64,000 nucleotides of DNA from Polytrichum commune. Its lineage: Eukaryota > Streptophyta > Polytrichopsida > Polytrichales > Polytrichaceae. A program made the position numbers and the translations under genes. Location of the stretch: the NCBI GenBank assembly GCA_950295325.1, contig OX485805.1, positions 14,061,501 to 14,125,500 on the forward strand, read 5' to 3'. Shown here in pieces: positions 1-53,200 of the stretch (its first letter is position 1; the number at the start of each line of letters is the position of its first letter). Under the pieces are notes generated by a model. The model saw nothing but the letters and a program-made list of their open reading frames with translations, made no database searches and was not told the DNA's origin.

Positions 1-17
1 AAGGAGGAGGTAGGAAA

Positions 18-41
18 AGAGGCCTCGGATCCGAGGCCTCT
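18..41. repeat. 24-bp perfect palindrome
   Basis: A perfect 24-bp inverted repeat centred on GGATCC, with AGAGGCCTC arms. It lies about 170 bp upstream of the first coding exon of the gene that follows. It could be a promoter element or simply a chance or cloning-like palindrome; no function can be assigned. Confidence 0.6.
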
Positions 42-212
42 CATTCGTAGGTAGGTTAGTGCTAGAGTTGACCACTTGACTTAGCATTCGGCCATTTTCA
101 TTTGTAGTTTGCTCTCGGCCTTGTATTGTTTTTGTGAGGCTTTGTTTCTTTATGGTTACGAAGTTATTGACTTTTCTTTGTGAAATTCTCATTTTCTCCA
201 TGTTCTTAGGAT

Positions 213-3200
213 ATGGACTCTTCACAGGTTGCGCAATCGCAACCCCAATCTGGAGAGGATGTTGTTCTTGCGGCCCCCGCGGTTGAAGTTGAAGCTGTGC
301 AGGTTGAGAGTCTCAATTCGCAGGGCCCATTACAAGTAGAGGTGAGTTGGATAGTTGTTGAGTAATTTGTTGAGTAATTTGTTGAGCAAGTTTTTTGAGT
401 TCTAGCTTTCTAAGCATGGTTTTATTGTTTGTGTTTTTGTTAGGCTCTCGCAATGAGCGAAGATGCCGTTCAAGCAGTTGCCGACACGGATCCCGTGGTG
501 TGTGAGTTTGAGCTTCGGAAATCACAAAAGGAGGACTCCATTGGTGTTATCCAACGCCTCCAGATTAAGCCAACCTGTAAGTCTCGCTTATCCATTCCTT
601 TGTGCCGCTTGAGAGCCCTCCCTCTCGTCCGTCCTATCAGTGAGGTTGAGGTGCAGCGCTTGGAATGTGAATTTGTAATGGGATACCGAGAGGGTGATCG
701 GGTTCTTTACGTGTCTGCTTTCAACGACGTTCCCGTGGACCTCCCCATTCCCCTGGCATTATGGCCTCTTGGAGCCCTCTCTGGCAAGAGGCCTCCGCAG
801 AATTTGACGCCAAGCTCAAGGAGGATCCGGATCTTGCACATTTCGCCGGGAAGATGTTCTTCGTCTGGGAAGGCAATCATCGTCTCACCGCTTAGTGGAG
901 ACACATCAATAACCACCACGCCGATGACAAGAGTTGGCATATCTCGGTGGATTACATTGTTGTTGACCCTAGAGGATACACCGGTGTATTCCTCAATGCC
1001 ATGAGCGACATTAATTGGTAAGCTCACTCATTTTTTTCATTCATTTTTCATTTTTGTTTTAATTCTTTTCCATTCTTTTTACCTCACGTTCCTCACATAT
1101 TTTCTCTTAGGTCAACCGAGCATGATTATGTCAAGGCAAACATTCCGGCCAAGCTCCTTCGAATCCGCACTTTTGGGAGGTTAGAGTTGTCCACCTTCAA
1201 GGATCTCATATCGCCATCTGACTACAAAACATGCGAGAAGATAAAGGAGAGTCGCCCAACTTGGTATACATTGACCGCGGATGTGTTCGTTAAGTTTCTT
1301 TACAAGGTATGGTTTTGTGCATTCAATCATTTAGAGCTTCCAACATAGATAATTTCCATGCCGATTATATGAACTCACAAGATCATTTCTTGTAGAGAGA
1401 CATTTCGGCTCAAGCAGACCTTGCAGTGAGGCATTACCGTGAGACCACACCCGTTGCGGAGAGGTCGGCCACTGAGATTTGGAATGTTATGACCAAGGCC
1501 CAGGAGAGGACAATCAAAAGTATTCGGGCCCGTTTTTTTGAGAAGTACATATCCGTTGCACACCCTGACAATGGAGAGGATTTCTTTCATGAGGTACTCT
1601 TTTGAACTCAAATCACTCTTGAACGCAGTTCATCCAAATCACTCTTCAACTCTATTACTCTTTTGAATTCAAATCATTTTTACTTTGTGCACAGATTGAC
1701 CGCCATTTTAATGAGTTCTCTTCGACGGACATGACAATTGAAAAATTGCAAAAAATTGTCACATGCCCGGTCGAAGCTTCGTTCAAAGCTAAGTGGCTTC
1801 ACTGGGGGAACGCCCCTCTTCGTGAAAGGTTAGATAACAAGTTCCCCGTCGACAAGCCTATGAGGGAGAGGGCTTTGGACGACTGGCTACACAAGGCGTC
1901 CTTCTGGGGTCAGATAAATCCATTCCTCGGCCTTCTTCATTTTCATTTTCCTCTATTCCATTTATTTCATATCTAATCATCTCCCTCTCTGCAGTTGGAG
2001 AAGGAAGTCACGGTTGAAATTGAGACCTTAGAGGAAAGCCTCTCCGTCGACATTGATTGGGACGCATCAGAAACTATCTTGCGCCCTCGTGAGAACGTTG
2101 ATCATTGGCGGATTGTCCTTTGGGACAAGGCCTTCAAGCCTTACCTCGGCGATAAATTTGACATCGCCTTTGCCAAAGGTGATAATCTCTTGGAGTTCGA
2201 GGAGGGGGCTCTCGCTATCAAGCGTGTGGCCTATCGGTAATACATCTATCCTCCACTTTGCACCTCTTCTTATTCTCATTTCTTGTTCGTTTTCTTGGTT
2301 TTCTTACATTCTTGTTTTGTCATGTAGGTATATCATGAGAGAATTGGTTGTGAAGAATGCATTGGCCTCATCTTCCTTGCCGGACTACCTCTCAGACTGG
2401 GTGAATATTTTTTCTAGCCTCTGCGTGTATACGACCGCGCAAACAAACAAGTTCTCCGAATTGCACTTGTAGGGTGGTGGATAGTACTTGGATTGTGTTG
2501 CAGGATTTGTCCCCGGGGAAGAGAAGGCTTTGTTTGCTAGCCTTGTGGGTAGTGCTCCGGATAATAACATTGTTACCTTGGAGGAGCCTGACATCGTTGA
2601 GCTTCCCCCTCCTCCTTCTAAGGCACCAAGGAGAAAGGGCAGAGCAAAGAAGACCGCCACTCAAGTATCTTCCCAAGTTCTCACTCGGTCTGCTTCTAAG
2701 ACCCCGGTTGAGCCACCCACCCTTCCACACAGTCCATCTATCGCTCCCTCCATTGCTCCCTCTCTTGCCCCCTCTGTTACTCCATCTGCATTTCATCCAC
2801 AATCTCTTGCCACTCCATCTCACAGTGGCACTTCTTTCCTCTCTTTGCCTCGCAAGAGGAAGGTCGCTCTCTTGGATACCAGTGCCACTTCTTTGGATGC
2901 CCCTAACACGCTCTCCCTCATCGAAAATGTGGACATGGTTCAACTAATGCTGGATTCCGAGGTTGTCAGAGGTCCCCTCCCCGCATATACCCGCATCCAA
3001 GAGTTTATTGCCAAGGTTTGTATATTTGCCTTCGTCAATTCTCAATTTTTTTTCCTTTGCTTTGCTTATTTCTTTCCTTCTTATTTTCTCATGAAGTTTC
3101 AATTGCAGGTTGGAGCAGGTTGTTCCCGTGTGAACACCTTGACTACAACTCACAAGGGCCTCGATTTGCTCTTCGCCGACATTTCCGAGAATTTGCCGGT

Positions 3201-4415
3201 GCCGAACATCTCTACCGATGTTCCTGCTTGGAACAAGCTCCATGAATCATACTATGAGTGTCTTTTTGCATTTGCGAAATCTAACCTCTATGATCATGGT
3301 GTCTTTGTTCTTGCCCATTGTGCGAGTGCCAGTGTTTCTAGGAGTATTTTCGATTGGGCACACACTTATGACTTCTACGTCGCGGAAGATTGGTTTGGAA
3401 TGAATGATTTGGACCTCCAATCTCCCGTTGTTCCCTCTGGAGTGGTAAGTAAGTATCCCTCTCTTCCCCTTCCGTATTGCTTATCATTTCAATTTCAATT
3501 CAATTTCAATTCAATTTCAATTTCATTTTCATTGTTGCAGACTCGGAAGTTCAGCATCAAAGTTCTTGTTCGTGTTAACTCCGTTCTTAGAGTGCGGGAG
3601 GAGGCCATACAAGAGTATGGTTACAACCTCCAACGAGATGGATGGTTGAATACCTTCACCGATGAGAAGAGCCAGGCGATGCGCAGTGATGGGGTTTCTT
3701 GGCGAGGTGCCCGTGAGAAGCATCATGTTTTTTTTTCCATCCTTCTCGCTACTCTCACCGACAAGAATGATGTTATTATGGACTGGCAGTGTGGTGTAGG
3801 TACGCCTTCTTTTTCAACTTCATCCTTAGTTTGAATTTTCTATTATTTTTCCTTGACTAGTTTCCATACTAACATTTTACCTCTCTTTGCTTTAGGTGGT
3901 TCGATTACAACATGTCGCTCCCTTGAGCGGCATATTGTGGCCCTTGAGAGTGACCCCGTCATTTTCAATTCACTCCTACTCCCCATGCGCGATCCCCAGC
4001 CTGCGCGTATATCTCGCTCAGTTGCCGCACCGTCTACATCTATCTTTGATCCTCCTCAAAAGATGACCAAGAGGGCATTCGGATTCCTTTGTGCGTAAGT
4101 TTGCTTTCTATATTTTGCCATGTTTGCCTTGATTTCAAATTCTTATTTTCTAGTGTCATCATGTTTCTAATCCTTTTGCTTGGGTGTTTAGAGAGCCAGC
4201 GGAGGTCGCAGTCATTCGTCGAGACATGTTTTTCAAGTCCTCCGAAGCCGTTTGAGCTTCCCCCGTATGCTAGTGCAATGGCGGATTGTTTTGTGAAGGC
4301 GGAGTTCCCATCTCCTCCTCGCGTTCGTCATTTCTCGCTTCTAGCACGAAATTTTTTCTTGTTAGAAGCAAATGAGGGTGAGGAGAGTGATAGGGAATGT
4401 TCTCCAAGCCCTTAG
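213..4415 (+). pseudogene. ParB-like / permuted amino-methyltransferase-like fusion gene, 12 exons, decayed
   Basis: A multi-exon gene that I reconstructed from splice sites. Exons are 213-341, 444-1017, 1111-1306, 1396-1593, 1695-1913, 1995-2236, 2328-2400, 2473-3015, 3109-3444, 3541-3799, 3896-4094 and 4192 onward, and all intron phases agree. The product would be about 1,000 residues. The N-terminal part carries F-V-W-E-G-N-H-R-L-T-A (EGNHR at 869-883), which resembles the DGNHR box of ParB/sulfiredoxin-fold domains. A Pro/Ser-rich, basic linker (about 2,600-2,870) follows. The C-terminal part resembles a beta-class DNA methyltransferase: the motif IV position reads A-D-I-S-E-N-L-P (3178-3192), and motif I, D-W-Q-C-G-V-G-G, comes last (from 3781, across an intron). 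Lesions are a 1-bp frameshift near 750-758, TAG at 893-895 and 2482-2484 where Trp would fit, and an AT instead of GT donor at 1914. The ending is ambiguous: TGA at 4253, or TAG at 4413-4415 in another frame. Domain names are inference; the gene structure is well supported. Confidence 0.6.
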
Positions 4416-4470
4416 TTTATCATTTTGGTTTTGGAGATTATAACTCCATTTGTTGTTGTTATCCGGCTTT

Positions 4471-4476
4471 AATAAA
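4471..4476 (+). promoter_or_regulatory. AATAAA polyadenylation signal
   Basis: AATAAA followed by GT/T-rich sequence, 55 bp after the furthest possible stop codon of the upstream 12-exon gene. It is placed as expected for that gene's 3' end. Confidence 0.5.
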
Positions 4477-4479
4477 AGT

Positions 4480-5412
4480 TGTGTGTTGGTTTTATTTTTG
4501 ATATCCGGCGCAAGTTTCATTCTTTCTCTCCATTATTTCATATTCATAATGTCAACCCGCATTGCATTCTTTATTTTTTCTTCATCGTTCGGATCTCTTA
4601 ACTTCTAGTCACAAAACAATCTAGCTCTCGGCTCTTAGTGTGAGATCTTAGTTATAGGGGGACCATACTTTCTATTAGTGTGGATGGTTTATTTTATGGT
4701 TGTGCACACTAATCACATTGGCCGTCTTCCAATCCCAATTGCTATATAGCAATTGGAAGTTTTGTTTGGCACGCGAACATAACCTCGTCAAACTTTTTAA
4801 ATTGAACTTCATGTTGTTCTCAAAGAGCCGGCACGTCACCTCAAAAATTTCCAAGAGGATTCTAAGGTTGGACTTGGGGGATTTGTCTTTGAGGTCTTTG
4901 GCTAAGCTAAGGACTGAATTGGAAGGCTGTTATGGTGCGACGGAGTTTTATGGCATGTTCTTTGGATCATTTTACCCATATTGGACATGCCCGGCAGATA
5001 GGGTGTAGATGGCCCTAAACTAGAGTATATAGCTATTTTAACTAACTACCCATTTTTGTAAGTCTTGAGGTTGGCTACATTTTGTTGACCAATAAAATAT
5101 TTTGTGTATGGTATTTTGATTTCAATTTGGTGACGTCAGCCCTAATTTAATATGATACATTTGAAAACATATACTATAAGATGTTTGATAACAAATGCAA
5201 TCTTCCACGCCTATAGGATCCGTTGGTTTCTCAAACAATTCTGGGTTATTATGTCCACGGGAATGGGGGTACCTTTCCAAATATAGAATTCAAATTATCT
5301 CTAATTCCACGGAAATAAGCACTGCTTCTCCTAAAATTACCCAACAAAATCTAAATTTTCCGCTCTCCAATCTCCGCTCTTCGCTCTCCGCTCTACGCTC
5401 ACATACTTGAGT
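4480..5412. other. gene-free AT-rich stretch
   Basis: No gene is recognisable. The TTAGTGTGG motif near 4674 recurs at 38.7-39.0 and 48.1 kb, so part of this stretch is probably an old small repeat. Pyrimidine-rich CTCTCCGCTCT runs lie at 5361-5400. Confidence 0.4.
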
Positions 5413-5482
5413 TTCCCATTGCCGGAGGATTGAAATTACAGTTGGATTGTCATCCAATGGTTGGAAATTTGGACCGGCCATG

Positions 5483-7034
5483 TGTGAGGCCAAACCACCC
5501 ACCCTTAAGCGTCCTAGTCCGGGTGAGGGAATGGATATCACATTCATGCTTCCACACTCCATTTGACCAAATTCGTGAGAATCCATTACATTTCCCATCA
5601 ATCAGTGCACACCAATCCATTCCACGATAATATTACAAGCGTTGACAAACACTCTTCTCTATTATCCCAATCATAACACCCCCTATTGCTACCCCAATAT
5701 CATTCACACCCCAAATCCAACCGCTAATCCTACCATCCAATACTTCTTGTTATCCTAGCTTACTACGAACTAATTATCTAAACTAATATTAAGTGATAAC
5801 CTAATTAACTATATATTACCAAGTCCCATGTGGCACCAAGGGTTCCCCCCTTTATATTCCTTGGTTCCCTTGAGTCTTATAACTAAATCCCTCAAGCCTA
5901 GCATTAAGCCCTTGAAGCCAGCGCTCCACATTCCCTTGTGACTGGCAGCTGCCCTCCCTAGCTAAGCTTAATATGTGAAATGTGGCCTTAGCCTGCCTCG
6001 GCAGCTGCTGCCTCCCTAACCTAGTTTAATCCTTGGACTGCAACTGATATTCGAAATGTGGCCTTAGCCTGCCCTCGGCAGCTGCTGCCTCCCTAGTCCA
6101 GCTTAATCCTTGAATTGCAACTGCCTTCTTTGAACTGTTGCCTAGCCTGTCCAAGGCAGCTGCTGCCTCCCTAATCCAACTTAATCCTTGAACTGCAAAT
6201 GCCTTCTTTGAACTGCTGCCTAGCCTGTCCAAAGCAGCTGCTGCCTCCCTAATCCAGCTTAATCCTTGAACTACAACCGATCTTCGAAATGTGGCCTTAG
6301 CATGCCCTCGGCAGCTGCTGCCTCCCTAGTCCAGATTAATCCTTGAACTGCAACTGCCTTCTTTGAATTGTTGCCTAGCTTGTCCAAGGCAGCTGCTGCC
6401 TCCCTAATCCAGCTTAATCCTTGAACTGCAACTGATCTTCGAAATGTGGCCTTAGCCTGCCCTCTGCAGCTGCCTTCTACATTAACCACACTAAGCCCTA
6501 CTTAATCTCACTAATTTCCCCAAGACCCCTTTGCTAATATTCCTACCTAATCAAACTAAATCCCCTAATACCCTCTTACTAATTCACACACTTTCTTCTA
6601 ACTCTAAGAGCTCAAAAATCCTAGAGAGGAGGGGGAGAGAGAGGGGTGAGGAGAAGAGAGGAAGAAGGAAGGGAGAGAGGAGGAGGAGGAGAGGGCACCC
6701 AAGACCACAAACCCCTTAACCTTCTCCTACTTAGTAGGACCTTATCATATCCACTAAATCCTCACCCTCTAAACCAACAAGAGCATGTTCTAAATCAAAC
6801 ATTAAAGTCCAAGGCCCTTCCCCTTGCTTCATCAACCACTTCTCAATTAACCAAAATACTTCCTAATGTCACTAAGCTTCTACTTAACCACACAAAATAG
6901 GCTTAAGGCCTAAAACATAAATCACACCAAGCCTCACTCTTTTTATACTTTTGATTGTTTCAATAACACTCCAAATGCAATTCTAAATAAATTCTAAACA
7001 TAAAACCAATATGAGCACTCATTTTGGGCTCATA
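5483..7034. mobile_element. solo LTR of an LTR retrotransposon
   Basis: This 1,552-bp insertion interrupts a hAT-like element. It is flanked by a 5-bp direct repeat, CCATG, at 5478-5482 and 7035-7039. It begins TGTGAG and ends CTCATA, the expected short inverted TG...CA repeat with one C-to-T change in the final CA. The size, the 5-bp duplication and the lack of any gag-pol sequence identify a solo LTR left by LTR-LTR recombination. Internally it has a 78-bp tandem array (5990-6480), a purine-rich tract at about 6623-6695, and TATA-like sequences near 5851 and 6940. The superfamily (Copia or Gypsy) cannot be told without the internal region. Confidence 0.8.
5990..6480. repeat. ~78-bp tandem array inside the solo LTR
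   Basis: The block GGCAGCTGCTGCCTCCCT recurs every 77-78 bp, at about 6000, 6078, 6155, 6233, 6310 and 6388, with a last partial copy near 6465. Two spacer types alternate: one contains CTTCGAAATGTGGCCTTAGCC, the other CCTTCTTTGAACTG. The higher-order unit is therefore about 155 bp. Confidence 0.85.
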
Positions 7035-9299: not shown

Positions 9300-9645
9300 C
9301 GTCCCTAGTCAACACCGCCCTCTAGTCCATCACCTTTCGCACATCCTCTCATAATATGGTGTATACGATCAAACCACTACTAAGTTGAGCTAGAGCTGCC
9401 GGTCGGCTCCTCAGGTAACGATTTCTACCTACAATACTTAGCCTTCATTGTCTCATTGTTGTCCTTTATGTGAGCCTCTAGCCTCTGGAACTCATTAGGC
9501 ATCTATCGCATATACGCCATGCGAATATGCGTCCAATGTTTTTTGGCCAATGAATCAGGGTTGCATCGTCACCACTCCTCCTTATAAAGATCCAAGATGT
9601 TTGCCACAACTGCATCTGATTACCGTCCACCCACCATCACATCCA
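9300..9645 (-). pseudogene. trihelix / Myb-SANT-like DNA-binding gene relic
   Basis: On the minus strand, from about 9640 down, the translation reads S-D-A-V-V-A-N-I-L-D-L-Y-K-E-E-W, then N-P-D-S-L-A-K-K-H-W-T-H-I. This is the helix pattern of plant trihelix/Myb-SANT domains (I-L-D-L-Y-x-E-x-W ... K-x-x-H-W). Further downstream, W-F-D-R-I-H-H-I-M and G-C-A-K-G-D-G-L-E-G-G-V-D resemble the conserved C-terminal block of the same proteins. Several in-frame stops interrupt it, including TAA at 9620-9622 where the domain's first Trp would sit. It could derive from a host transcription factor or from a PIF/Harbinger accessory protein. No intact start or end is visible. Confidence 0.45.
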
Positions 9646-10142
9646 AAGCTCGAGTAGCGGTTCTCTACTTCCCCCTAGGGTTTTGACACTTACAAGGACA
9701 CAACCAATGGAGGTGCTCTTAAAACTACAAGCGGGAGCGAAGAGGCACTAATCCTAGGCAGACTCGTGTTTTGAAGCCCAAAACCCCCTAGACCTTCACC
9801 TTGGTCCCCCAAACTGGTTGTCACCCATCGTAGCTAATGCCCCTACGATTCCAACGCCCCTATGTATGGCTAATCTTGACCTAACGGAAATAATTTACAC
9901 AAGCATTAGCATTGAAACCCTAAACTTCAAAGCTCTGAATAACTATAAACAATTGCGTTGGTTTGTGTGTGCATATGGGACCCAAGTGCCGAATTTGCCC
10001 GAAGCCATGTCTGTATGGCACAGTCAAAGGCACTGGAGTTATTCTAGCCCCGTCATGCTCATGAGTTACTATACTTGAAAGGTAAATTTGCTTCCGGGGA
10101 GTTACCTCAAAATCCTTCAAGCCTTGGACAACTGCCAAAATA

Positions 10143-10560
10143 ACTACAATTAACTAGATGTTTTTCAATACATTTTAGGGAACAACTATAGTTAACTAGA
10201 AAAATTTAAGACCAGATTCAAGAACAACTATAGTTAATTATTGTCGAAATTGCCTCTTTGTTTGTTTCAGTTAAGGGTTTTAAATATGCTCGGGTCATTG
10301 AGGATCATCAAGAAACGCATGTATATGATCACTCACAGTATTGGGCTCTGGAACAACCTTCATGTACACCACCAATACAAACAACACGCTACTAACACTA
10401 CACCACTACAACAAAATCCCGTGAACATGTTGCGCTCGATTTTAGTTAACTAGGTTTTTTGACATACCGAATTTGGAACAACTATAGTTAACTACATTTT
10501 TTGGCAGGTCAAATCGAGGACAACTATAATTACGAAAGGCAACTAGTTAACTAATAGTTG
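10143..10560. repeat. dispersed AACTATAGTTAACTA palindromic repeats
   Basis: The motif (A)ACAACTATAGTTAACTA or a close variant occurs at about 10181, 10223, 10477 and 10520, with related AACTAGTTAACTAATAG near 10541. The core AACTATAGTT is self-complementary. The run stops about 40 bp before a hAT-like insertion. Confidence 0.6.
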
Positions 10561-10601
10561 AATGAGTTGGTTAGTTGTCCAAGGTCTGAAATCCTTCTCT
10601 G

Positions 10602-10834
10602 CAATGATCGGGGAGGACCGGCAGTTAGTTACAAATGAACCGGTTGAGTTTGAAAAAATAACTGGTTGAAGTTGGAGACTTCAGGAGAATTGCCGACCAC
10701 TTTAGAAGAATCTATGGAATATACCTCAAATCAATGAAGAAAAACCGAAGGATGTCAACAACATGTAACCGGTTGGACTTGCAAACACTAGGATCTCAAC
10801 CGATTATTATGCCCAAAAATCTCCCCAATCACTG
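10602..10834 (+). mobile_element. hAT-like family 2 element, complete (233 bp)
   Basis: It starts CAATGATCGGGGAGGACCGGCAG and ends CTCCCCAATCACTG, giving imperfect terminal inverted repeats of the CARTGATCGGGGAGA type. The flanks CTTCTCTG (10594-10601) and CTTCTCTT (10835-10842) match at 7 of 8 bases, as expected for the 8-bp target duplication of hAT elements. Internally it has the family's paired ACCGGTT motifs. It is non-coding. Confidence 0.85.
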
Positions 10835-11126
10835 CTTCTCTTGCGCTGACTGAGAGCCCATGTTAAATACATCTTCTTCGCCCCTTTCTTACAAGCCTTT
10901 CAAGTTGGTCAATTGGCACAAGGTCAGTCAAGGAAGAAACACTTAACAAGGTGCAGACTAAAAACACGTTCTAATCTATCTATCTATGTGCATAGAATGA
11001 AAGAGGTGGTGGTGGCGGCATCGTTCCACCATTTCCCACTGTTTTGGAAAGGTAGGGGGGTAACATGTTAAGGTGATATGTTGTTTTGCATGGGTGTAAA
11101 GGGTTGGGATGGCACATGCTTGTACG

Positions 11127-11347
11127 ACACTAAATATGATATTCACTGTCACTTACTATTTGGAGTTACACAATGCTATATCTTATTATTGTTGATGTAA
11201 ATTTTCACCAAGTAAAGTTGTTAATGTGCTATAATGTCCAAACAACCAATTTCACATTTGTTGGTCAAATATGAGATACATACAAGAAATAGATATAGCA
11301 CTGCATAATTCCAAATAGTAAGTGATGCTAAATATAATATTTAGTGT
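11127..11347. mobile_element. small inverted-repeat element, family C, copy 2 (~221 bp)
   Basis: The left end, ACACTAAATATGATATTC then TCACTTACTATTTGGAGTT, is answered by an inverted right end: AATTCCAAATAGTAAGTGATG, then ATATTTAGTGT. The terminal repeats are about 55 bp and the loop about 110 bp. This is the best-preserved copy of the family. It is non-coding. Confidence 0.75.
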
Positions 11348-13572: not shown

Positions 13573-13654
13573 CGTGCTCGGCAGGATTCGAACCTGCGCG
13601 GGCAGAGCCCACATGATTTCTAGTCATGCCCGATAACCACTCCGGCACGAGCAC
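13573..13654 (-). tRNA. tRNA-Ser (anticodon AGA)
   Basis: An 82-nt class II tRNA. The acceptor stem GTGCTCG/CGAGCAC has all seven pairs, the discriminator base is G (13573), and the anticodon stem CATGA/TCATG encloses loop CTAGAAA (anticodon AGA, reading UCU). A long variable arm GGGCTCTGCCC is followed by T-arm GCAGG-TTCGAAT-CCTGC. The B box GGTTCGAATCC is intact. The long variable arm and the G discriminator are serine identity elements. No T run lies close downstream: the first TTTTT on the minus strand is about 65 bp beyond the gene, so transcription termination may be poor. Confidence 0.93.
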
Positions 13655-17040: not shown

Positions 17041-17362
17041 ATGCAATTATTGATCTAGCTCTTGTACTTCCCACATGAGTAGATTAAGTGAACCTCCAGC
17101 TTTATGAACGGCACGCCCAAGGCCCAAAGGAAGAATACGCCAACCCACGCGCAGGTAGAAGGAGCCCAAGAGCAACTGTAAACAAAGAGCTCCTGGAGAA
17201 ACGAGAGCACGTCTACAGCATTCGAAATCAAGAGTATCTTGTTGAGGTTCTTCTCGGGCTACTCGATTCTGTGCACCGAGTTCAAGAAGTCGGTGAAACT
17301 TTCCGCCGTCCAGGTCGTGGTGCCAAACCTCGTTCCAACGACCTCCGAATTCAAGTCTGCAG
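17041..17362 (-). pseudogene. dirigent-like pseudogene, central and C-terminal part
   Basis: The minus-strand translation from 17362 reads D-L-N-S-E-V-V-G-T-R-F-G, then T-D-F-L-N-S-V-H-R-I-E. This aligns with residues 83-114 of the intact dirigent gene at 62587-63147. The next codon is TAG where the intact gene has Trp. Base similarity continues through the gene's end (AAGCTGGAGGTTCACTT near 17100), with small indels that break the frame. The N-terminal part is replaced by a tandem array (17354-17855). Confidence 0.85.
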
Positions 17363-17855
17363 AACAACCCACCGAGGGTCGAAATTGAAATCTGGAACCC
17401 GAATTAGAGTCATCGGTTTTAACGCTGCATATTTGGAGTTTTGCATTTCCAAATATACACATTCGTCACAAACCTTGTATTTAATGTTCAAGAAGAAATC
17501 ACTGCTACATTGATCGAACAAGTCTGCAGAACAACCCACCGAGGGTTGAGTTTGGAATCTGGAACCCGAATTAGAGTCATCGGTTTTAACGCTGCATATT
17601 TGGAGTTTTGCATTTCCAAATATACACATTCGTCACAAACCTTGTATTTAATGTTCAAGAAGAAATCACTGCTATATTGATCGAACAAGTCTGCAGAACA
17701 ACCCACCGAGGGTTGAGTTTGGAATCTGGAACCCGAATTAGAGTCATCGGATTTAAAACTGCATATTTGGAGTTTTGCATTTCCAAATATACATATTCGT
17801 CACAAACCTTGTATTCAATGTTCAAGAAGCAATCAATGCTATACTGGTTGAATGG
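17354..17855 (-). repeat. 167-bp tandem repeat, three copies, derived from dirigent 5' coding sequence
   Basis: Three near-identical units begin at 17354, 17521 and 17688, each starting AGTCTGCAGAACAACCCACC on the + strand. Read on the minus strand, each unit ends CGACCCTCGGTGGGTTGTT-CTGCAGAC. This matches the intact dirigent gene around residues 68-83, with a deletion of about 24 bp. Upstream, CCAGATTTCAATTTCGACC matches the same gene's CCAGATCACAAACTCGACC. The unit is therefore a triplicated N-terminal coding segment of the adjacent pseudogene. Copies 1 and 2 differ at only a few positions, so the triplication is much younger than the gene decay. Confidence 0.85.
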
Positions 17856-51429: not shown

Positions 51430-53200
51430 CAACACAAGGTACATGTCACATGTAAATTACACTTGGGGGGTTCACTCCCTCTTATATTTTGCATACACGT
51501 GCGTTCGGGACCTATTTATTGGGGGGCTATTTACCTTGCAGAAAAGATTATAAGGTATGGTATTTTTTAAAATAAAGGTGTGATGGTATTTTACATGTAA
51601 TCATTTTTCATTATTTTAAAACCCCCTATATTTTATGTAAGTTTTTTACAAAATTTATCTACAATGAATATATTAGACCCTATTTTTTATGGCACGTTGT
51701 TCTACGATTTTCGCTAGTGAACCCCCCGAGAAATTACATTGAACATGTACAAATAAAATCGCTCATTTTTTTTTGTAAAAATTGTTGTGAGAAGATTTGC
51801 AAGCCACGTCTTTGACATATTTAACAAGAAGGGAGGACAAGTGAAGCCCAAGAGAAGACAAGAGAATGGTCAAACTTGAATTTTTTTCAAAACTACATTT
51901 TTTGTGCAAGTTAAAAAAAAAAAAACACCTTCACTTTTTTGGGCATGGTCATTCTTCTTGGTCCACATTCGGCTTACACCTAGTGAGGGGCCCAAGGCTT
52001 TCAAAATTGATTTCTTAAGAAGTTAGACCATGAACTCAGTCCATTCACAAAGGCCATCTTCCATGGTCACGGGTAGATCACTCTAAGGCATTTTTGTGCA
52101 CCACGTGCGGCTGGGGGTCTTTTGTTTTGGGGCTATTTACCTCCAAGGGTTGAATTAAAGCCTCCCTATAATTACTTAAATTTCAAAATTGGCCCATTTG
52201 TTTGCACCTTTCCATTACTTATATTGTCCAAGTCACTGCAATTTTTTGTACTCTATATTACTTTTAAGTAATAAAAGCTAATCTACTTCCTAACGCAATT
52301 GACGAGTGTTGAGGGAAAGCATGAAAACAAAGAAGGGTGCAAACAGTAGTACCATTGCAAACACTGTTATGATGAAAACACATAGGAGATGCCAACACAA
52401 ATACCATAGCGGTCATTGCAATGTTGAACATACCTTCTAGGATCCTTATCTTCAACCCCTATATTAATTTTACAAAAAAATAATGGCCCACGTTTTATGT
52501 CCATCTAACTTACTTATAATGGGATTGCACAGGTAGATCACTCCATTGTCAAGTTGAACACCACGTGCGACCAAAAAAAATCTTCTTTTGGTAAGTTGCA
52601 CCACCAAAATAGGTCGAAAGTTTATCAAATTTTTTTCATGAGTAGATATACACAATACCTATGACATAGTTAAAAGTGGTAACTAAATTTGATGAGTTGT
52701 TTTTTTCATAAAACATATTGTTTCTAACTAGAATGACACAGAAATGAACTAAAACAATTACTAAAAAAAATAAAGATGACTAAAGATTTCAAAAAATATA
52801 CAAAAGATACTATCAATGGTTATGTATATGTAGAAAAAATATCATAAATTTTAAAATTATATATGGCATGTAATATAGGGGTAGCAAACTTTGTCCGCAC
52901 GTGGTGGCAACTTGACAATGAAGTGACCTCCCCGTGTGGGATTGTCTACATTTAATGGCCCCTTCATTATTTGGAACTCCTTTATAATTTTTATTTCAAA
53001 TGATTTTAATCCTCTCTATATTATGCTGCACGTCGTTTTTAAAATGCACTAAGTGATCTACCCGTGTCCATGGTCCGACTTCATGGTCCATAGTGTAAAC
53101 CAGCCCTAAGTCTACTTCACACTGAGTTTTTAACTTGAGAGCTTTAACTTTTTCTTTTCTAAGCTTAGGGCGAGGTTCCATGTACCGGTCCCAGTTTATT
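51430..53200. other. gene-free stretch with inverted fragments of a dispersed repeat
   Basis: CCATGGTCACGGGTAGATCAC (about 52062) is inverted at about 53055 (GTGATCTACCCGTGTCCATGG). GGTCCACATTCGGCTTACACC (about 51981) has an inverted match at about 61565. These are pieces of one dispersed repeat family that also lies upstream of the dirigent gene. No gene is seen. Confidence 0.5.

What the first reader, a model, noticed from the sequence alone, without database searches (positions are those of the whole stretch)
213..4415. Plant gene fusing a ParB-like region to a circularly permuted amino-methyltransferase-like region
A 12-exon gene with consistent intron phases encodes E-G-N-H-R-L-T-A in the N-terminal third (ParB/sulfiredoxin-like box). 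The C-terminal half has a motif IV-like block before a motif I-like block (D-W-Q-C-G-V-G-G then A-L-E-S-D-P), the order of beta-class DNA amino-methyltransferases. ParB-methylase fusions are familiar in phages and bacteria. I do not know of a characterised intron-rich plant version. It could be a domesticated phage-type gene, or cargo of a large transposon that modifies DNA. Exons and motifs are seen; the domain assignments are inference.
Basis: partly seen in the sequence, partly recalled or inferred. Interest (0 to 1): 0.8.

Follow-up and report, generated by a model that had tools for sequence, protein, structure and literature searches.

The report
Transposon gene beside self-palindrome arrays
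The odd gene is a broken copy of a gene carried by a high-copy jumping element; it is built on a DNA-methylating-enzyme scaffold that seems to have lost its active site, and several related elements carry their own repeated palindrome in front of the gene, which suggests, but does not prove, that the protein recognises its own element.

Summary
The gene is real but is a decayed copy (11 exons, not 12) inside a 15.3-kb DNA transposon whose left end lies outside the window. Two of three near-identical copies read are intact (1,087 aa). The element has inverted terminal repeats and 9-bp target duplications (11 of 12 copies checked); its exact right end occurs 93 times in the 408-Mb genome. The C-terminal half is homologous to beta-class amino-methyltransferases (PDB profile E 8e-11; Pfam N6_N4_Mtase in 8 of 8 genes pooled from several families, best 2e-10), but the catalytic aromatic of motif IV is E, D or Q in 11 of 12 genes read. 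The ParB assignment rests only on a conserved GNHR box; Pfam, PDB and profile tests do not support it. Upstream of 6 of 14 genes examined, an identical perfect palindrome is repeated (3 to 46 times; 0 of 10 control stretches, 0 of 280 shuffles); it differs between families and is often alike in related ones. Best reading: a transposon accessory protein that recognises its own element's palindromes, working like VANC anti-silencing factors. Binding is not shown. ParB-methylase transposon proteins were already reported in algae.

The parts
1..5417 (+). Right-hand part of a 15.3-kb TIR DNA transposon (G000:C3:14051640-14066917); its left 9.9 kb lies outside the window
   Evidence: Copies A, B, C and the window copy align at 96-99% and share the same sharp right end; left end in copy C and the window copy; exact ends searched genome-wide
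19..40 (.). Last copy of the 22-bp palindrome GAGGCCTCGGATCCGAGGCCTC; 21 perfect copies in L013 plus window 1-6000, and 25, 26 and 44 in the stretches of copies C, B and A
   Evidence: 1,903 places genome-wide, reversed control 0
213..341 (+). Exon 1
   Evidence: splice sites and alignment with copy A
444..1017 (+). Exon 2, ParB-like region with EGNHR box at 869-883; frameshift and TAG 893-895 in this copy
1111..1306 (+). Exon 3
1396..1593 (+). Exon 4
1695..1913 (+). Exon 5; its splice donor is changed in this copy
1995..2236 (+). Exon 6
2328..3015 (+).
3109..3444 (+). Exon 8, methyltransferase-like region, motif IV position DISE at 3178-3189 (DIPE in seven of the eight other copies aligned, DIPK in L020)
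3541..3799 (+). Exon 9, methyltransferase-like, motif I begins (DWQCGV)
3896..4094 (+). Exon 10, rest of motif I and the following acidic residue (ALESD)
4192..4415 (+). Exon 11; frameshift in this copy
5364..5417 (-). Right terminal inverted repeat, ending CTCACATACTTGAGTTTCCC (extent carried over from copy C)
5418..5426 (.). 9-bp target-site duplication ATTGCCGGA, same 9 bases before the left end in L013

Best explanation
The gene is a decayed copy of an accessory gene of a high-copy TIR DNA transposon (9-bp TSD, Mutator-like behaviour). The intact protein has a conserved N-terminal region with a W-[DE]-G-N-H-R box, a low-complexity linker and a C-terminal region homologous to beta-class amino-methyltransferases that kept part of the cofactor motif but lost the catalytic aromatic. 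I propose that the protein recognises the palindromes that its own element repeats upstream of the gene, by its N-terminal half or together with the transposase, and that binding many sites marks or shields the element, so that it escapes silencing or is recruited for transposition, as VANC proteins do for VANDAL elements. Shown: transposon, multicopy, selection on the protein, methyltransferase homology, missing aromatic, family-specific palindrome arrays in part of the families. Inferred: that this protein is what binds the palindromes; that binding counters silencing; that the methyltransferase part no longer methylates.
For: Element ends and TSDs: (9 of 10 pairs by script, plus window copy and copy C by eye = 11 of 12). 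Intact copies: A and C of three read. Selection. Methyltransferase homology: profile of 8 genes against PDB, E 8.4e-11 (5hfj) and 1.3e-5 (CcrM), 12 of 13 distinct sequences at E<=1 named methyltransferases or methylases; Pfam N6_N4_Mtase in 8 of 8 genes, best 2e-10; hhalign 98.9% over 173 columns (biased set). Aromatic missing: 11 of 12 genes. Palindromes: 6 of 14 upstream regions have a repeated identical perfect palindrome, 0 of 10 control stretches, 0 of 280 shuffles; a near-palindrome scan gives the same six. Kinship: the window family has TCGGATCCGA and L047 TCGGTACCGA (57% aa); L052 and L055 share GCCGTTAACGGC (61%); L045 and L062 share TGCGTTAACGCA (80%).
Against: 8 of 14 upstream regions show no repeated palindrome, among them L064 (88% aa to L052, which has nine) and L053 (66% to L047). 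Palindromes sit in tandem repeats, so copies within one array are not independent, and the shuffles do not model tandem duplication; control stretches overlap and come from one window. The core CGTTAACG is shared by L052/L055 and the distant L045/L062 (36-40% aa), so it does not follow kinship strictly. No binding data; the transposase could be the binder. The ParB relation fails every statistical test. Anti-silencing is by analogy; relation to VANC was not tested. AlphaFold models were useless (mean pLDDT 35 and 31).
Confidence: 0.5

Rival explanations
1. An active DNA amino-methyltransferase with a changed motif IV writes 6mA or 4mC on its own element (the proposal in print for algal elements), with the palindromes as its target sites.
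For: Homology to 6mA and 4mC enzymes; cofactor region partly kept; phage and plasmid enzymes also have D-[LI]-P-Y, so only the last residue deviates; one copy, L041, has DIPY; exons 8-10 under purifying selection.
Against: The aromatic is E, D or Q in 11 of 12 genes from several families; L041 may be a chance mutation, since its near relatives L040 and L044 have DIPD and L041 is itself damaged.
Confidence: 0.17
2. The palindrome arrays are binding sites of the element's transposase or cis transposition signals; the methyltransferase-like protein does something unrelated.
For: Subterminal repeats that bind transposon proteins are a known feature of other transposons (recalled); a transposase-like gene lies on the other side of the arrays.
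Against: In the five other genes with arrays the palindromes lie within 2.7 kb upstream of the ParB-like exon, and their sequence partly follows kinship of that exon; kinship of the transposases was not tested, so this does not separate the two.
Confidence: 0.24
3. A domesticated host gene with a cellular role.
For: Intact copies and low dN/dS.
Against: 93 exact right ends, TSDs, decayed copies, 3,523 first-look candidates. Selection during transposition can explain the low dN/dS (inference).
Confidence: 0.03

Closest known systems
ParB plus N4C/N6A methyltransferase accessory proteins of algal transposons (Sola1-1_Ec32 of Ectocarpus, PMC12477816; green and red algal ones cited there as refs 50 and 51, neither held here)
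   Same: Similar size (1,104 aa against 1,087), ParB-like and amino-methyltransferase-like parts, accessory gene of a large DNA transposon on the strand opposite the transposase
   Different: Element with 9-bp TSD; ParB not detectable by profile here; catalytic aromatic missing in 11 of 12 genes; palindrome arrays, of which the passages read say nothing. No direct sequence comparison was possible
VANC anti-silencing proteins of Arabidopsis VANDAL elements (PMC5735166 passages, PMC10398659 abstract)
   Same: Accessory protein of a Mutator-type element; [quoted passage not shown]
   Different: Motif is a long perfect palindrome; the protein is a methyltransferase homologue; binding and demethylation not shown here; homology to VANC not tested
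Phage ParB-methylase fusions (for example Lactobacillus phage T280, L023)
   Same: Order: ParB box, then beta-class methyltransferase
   Different: In the phage protein both domains pass Pfam cut-offs; here ParB does not and motif IV is changed
Adenine-specific DNA methyltransferase DpnA of PDB entries 5hfj and 5hek, and CcrM (6pbd)
   Same: Best solved relatives of the C-terminal region by sequence profile, same motif order
   Different: Active enzymes with an aromatic last residue in motif IV (5hfj reads DPPY)
Bdelloid N4CMT (PMC8885841, start of abstract in a listing) and the Marchantia N4-cytosine enzyme (recalled)
   Same: Amino-methyltransferase-type genes in eukaryotes
   Different: Host enzymes (recalled); here a transposon gene with changed catalytic motif

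Membership tests
TIR DNA transposon | Inverted terminal repeats and target-site duplication | tested here: met
   9-bp exact TSD in 9 of 10 pairs plus window copy and copy C; TIR 42 bp at 95% plus an imperfect outer 12 bp
Mutator-like (MULE) | 9-bp TSD | tested here: met
Mutator-like (MULE) | MULE transposase domain PF10551 | tested here: not met
   Left-hand ORFs give only weak unrelated Pfam hits, best FERM_M 0.0099; 150 genome matches scored of 271, none listed inside the window copy or copy C
Mutator-like (MULE) | SWIM-type zinc finger in the transposase | tested here: inconclusive
   CxC...CxH pattern seen by eye in the ORF at 9599-11263 of copy C; no Pfam match
Beta-class DNA amino-methyltransferase (N6_N4_Mtase) | Sequence homology | tested here: met
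   (and 138, biased set); the window family alone is below cut-off (best 0.012, 3 of 5 members)
Beta-class DNA amino-methyltransferase (N6_N4_Mtase) | Motif IV before motif I | tested here: met
Beta-class DNA amino-methyltransferase (N6_N4_Mtase) | Catalytic motif IV ending in an aromatic (motif recalled; seen as D-[PLI]-P-Y or S-P-P-Y) | tested here: not met
   E, D or Q in 11 of 12 genes; Y in L041 only; K in L020
ParB_N domain | GNHR-type box | tested here: met
   GNHR in 16 of 16 rows of A7 and 23 of 24 (L041 has GNHP); L016 of the window family has RNHR
ParB_N domain | Profile match to ParB_N | tested here: not met
   0 of 5, 0 of 16; hhalign to 11 phage ParBs 1.8%, no better than an unrelated control at 2.4%; genome PF02195 matches lie only on contigs C12 and C23
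ParB_N domain | Fold | tested here: inconclusive
   AlphaFold mean pLDDT 35, no Foldseek match at E<=0.001
VANC-like anti-silencing factor | Family-specific motif arrays in non-coding parts of its own element | tested here: inconclusive
   Arrays upstream of 6 of 14 genes; element limits were worked out for the window family only, and that the motif is the protein's target is not shown
VANC-like anti-silencing factor | Binds the motif and removes methylation | not testable with these tools
   needs experiments
VANC-like anti-silencing factor | Sequence homology to VANC | not tested
   no VANC sequence was fetched

The most novel reading that the evidence does not exclude
A clan of plant transposons built a ParB-parS-like self-identity system: each family has its own long palindrome, repeated upstream of the gene, and a cognate protein in which a methyltransferase fold, stripped of its catalytic residue, serves as a cofactor-binding or DNA-reading module; binding nucleates a protein coat that keeps the host's methylation off that family only.
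Probability: 0.2. Interest if true: 0.85.

Novelty: new variant of a known kind. Interest (0 to 1): 0.67.

Why it matters
How a transposon's protein recognises its own family and evades silencing is, to my knowledge, worked out for few elements. Here one genome holds many related proteins and, in several families, distinct long palindromes that can be paired and swapped in binding assays. The repeated absence of the catalytic aromatic also tests the published suggestion that such proteins methylate their own DNA.

Tried and rejected
AlphaFold on the ParB-like exon and on exons 8-10 read through two introns: mean pLDDT 34.8 and 30.9, Foldseek without a match at E<=0.001; not used. Viral contigs: two scans, 93 and 30 pattern matches, none confirmed. 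Window protein against Pfam: nothing at E<=1; the methyltransferase relation needed several families. ParB: Pfam, PHROGs, NCBIfam, PDB and profile tests gave no ParB match; the best hits of the 16-exon set were unrelated (katanin 0.024 in PDB, MSL3 chromo-like 0.0074 in Pfam, one member). DUF1015, hit by 3 of 16 members at best E 0.049, has a similar box by my recall only; not counted. Domesticated phage gene: rejected because multicopy with TSDs. Set A5, used, was picked from hits to the query, so those two are biased; searches are not. Two cited papers (Iyer 2011, Petroll 2025) were not held. Searches for a land-plant report: searches showed none among the rows listed; most subscription papers are not held. 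The host was not identified: seven contigs hold 406.1 of 407.8 Mb; a guess at a Polytrichaceae moss was recall, and one paper search on it did not settle it.
Full report
What is in the window. A gene lies at 213-4415 on the + strand. Alignment with three copies (A, B, C) and of copy A with seven more divergent ones gives 11 exons. Spliced as they stand, copies A and C encode 1,087 aa without interruption and copy B has one stop at residue 37; 10 of 10 introns are GT-AG in each. The window copy has two frameshifts, three premature stops and a changed splice donor, so it is a pseudogene copy. No transcript data were available.

It belongs to a transposon. Copies A, B and C are about 99% identical to each other, the window copy 96-97% to them, and all four end at the same base on the right. 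In the window copy, 9 bases (ATTGCCGGA) before the left end are repeated after the right end; copy C has another 9-base repeat. Of ten further end pairs that I picked by eye, nine have an exact 9-bp duplication and one has none. The ends are inverted repeats: 42 bp at 95% and an imperfect outer 12 bp. The exact 20-mer of the right end occurs 93 times, the exact 21-mer of the left end 24 times, reversed controls 0. The window copy is 15,278 bp long; its left 9.9 kb lies outside the window. On the other side of the arrays and on the other strand is a long split gene that looks like a transposase by eye but matches no Pfam transposase, and the genome PF10551 matches listed do not include it. I therefore call the element Mutator-like by its 9-bp duplication only.

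The protein. Pairwise dN/dS in 8 deep pairs (of 12 computed) is 0.10-0.16 for exon 2 (7 pairs), 0.07-0.13 for exons 3-6, 0.16-0.26 for exons 8-10 and 0.27-0.47 for exon 7; the other four, shallow pairs gave 0.26-0.50 overall. The C-terminal region of the window family alone is a weak match to N6_N4_Mtase: best 0.012, 3 of 5 members, PDB E 0.04 to an adenine methyltransferase. In phages and plasmids the 30 places listed (of 72 and 22 records, several near-duplicates) lie under annotated methylases, apart from one record without annotation; best E 8e-4, 23 of the 30 above 0.01. A genome search with PF01555 found 118 matches at E<=10, five over the cut-off, three of these on contigs C10 and C12; this led to further families. 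A profile of eight genes then hits 13 distinct PDB sequences at E<=1, 12 of them named methyltransferases or methylases, best 8.4e-11, and 8 of 8 members match N6_N4_Mtase, best 2e-10, the window-family member at 0.1. Motif IV stands before motif I. At the motif IV position the sequence is DIPE, DLPE, DIPD, DIPQ or QCPD in 11 of 12 genes and DIPY in one, whereas the nine phage and plasmid enzymes aligned all have PY there, D-L-P-Y and D-I-P-Y included.

The ParB question. The exon with the box has 150 scored matches of 1,017 candidates in the genome when searched with a family-2 sequence, all at E 4.7e-23 or less; the window family's own exon-2 places are not among them (checked by eye), so this is a lower bound. 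GNHR is kept in 23 of 24 rows; A7 is 16 of these rows, those with stops and some near-duplicates left out. No ParB match appears in Pfam, PDB, PHROGs or NCBIfam, and hhalign with 11 phage ParBs gives 1.8% (P 0.028), no better than an unrelated control (2.4%), although its best local match is exactly this box. ParB-like is a motif-level suggestion.

The palindromes. The window element's copies carry arrays of tandem repeats (307, 127 and 96 bp units among others) with 21 to 44 perfect copies of GAGGCCTCGGATCCGAGGCCTC; 1,903 genome-wide, reversed control 0. I took 13 further upstream regions (5.1 to 8.3 kb) of related genes. With copy A, 6 of 14 have an identical perfect palindrome of 16 bp or more repeated: A 46, L052 9, L055 8, L062 8 and 3, L045 3 and 2, L047 3; eight have none repeated. 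L045 and L062 belong to one family (80% aa), so this is five families. Of 280 first-order Markov shuffles none had a repeat; of 10 overlapping control stretches from window 6001-64000 none did. A near-palindrome scan gives the same six. Families differ, and related ones are often alike: the window family and L047 share TCGGnnCCGA, L052 and L055 GCCGTTAACGGC, L045 and L062 TGCGTTAACGCA; FastTree groups the window family with L047 and L053 at 0.98, L045 with L062 at 0.996, and L055 with L052/L064 weakly at 0.54. Against this: L064 and L053 are close relatives without arrays, CGTTAACG is common to the distant L052/L055 and L045/L062, and copies within a tandem array are not independent.

What is known. 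PMC12477816 (abstract, passages and part of the reference list seen) reports a ParB plus N4C/N6A methyltransferase accessory protein in an Ectocarpus Sola1 element and cites similar ones in green and red algae, with the suggestion that they bind and modify their own transposon. PMC5735166 (passages) and PMC10398659 (abstract) describe VANC proteins that bind tandem-repeated motifs of their own VANDAL elements and remove silencing. PMC6446971 (passages) describes extra ORFs of Mutator elements. The present case seems to join the two: an algal-type accessory protein with a VANC-like arrangement of repeats. I therefore rate it a new variant of a known kind.

Judgement. Transposon origin and methyltransferase homology are close to certain. 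Loss of catalysis is likely, not shown. Self-recognition by palindrome is supported by arrays and partial co-variation in a minority of the genes examined and needs a binding test.

Noticed in passing
window 52593-52870: An 80% similar, 279-bp inverted fragment of the element's non-coding part, among the palindrome arrays.
   Followed up: no
window 5976-6473: Tandem repeat of 78/155-bp units with GCAGCTGCTGCC, starting about 550 bp beyond the insertion.
   Followed up: no
window 13573-13654: tRNA-Ser (AGA) gene on the minus strand.
   Followed up: no
window 17352-17843: About three copies of a 167-bp tandem repeat at 96% matches.
   Followed up: no
G000:C12:29034-30278, C10, C23: Contigs outside the seven large ones carry ordinary ParB and methylase genes, one a 501-aa frame matching both PF02195 and PF01555: possibly bacterial or phage DNA, not tested.
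   Followed up: no
L069 (upstream of L053), about 2,134 bases before the ParB-like exon: A single perfect 54-bp palindrome with internal repeats.
   Followed up: no
L095 (upstream of L062): A second palindrome, up to ACAGTTTGGGTCGGCCGACCCAAACTGT, three times within 215 bases of the ParB-like exon; a similar one (GGGTCGATCGACCC core) lies 8.1 kb upstream of the L047 exon.
   Followed up: no
G000 genome-wide: 150 scored MULE-domain (PF10551) matches, none seen inside the window copy or copy C.
   Followed up: no
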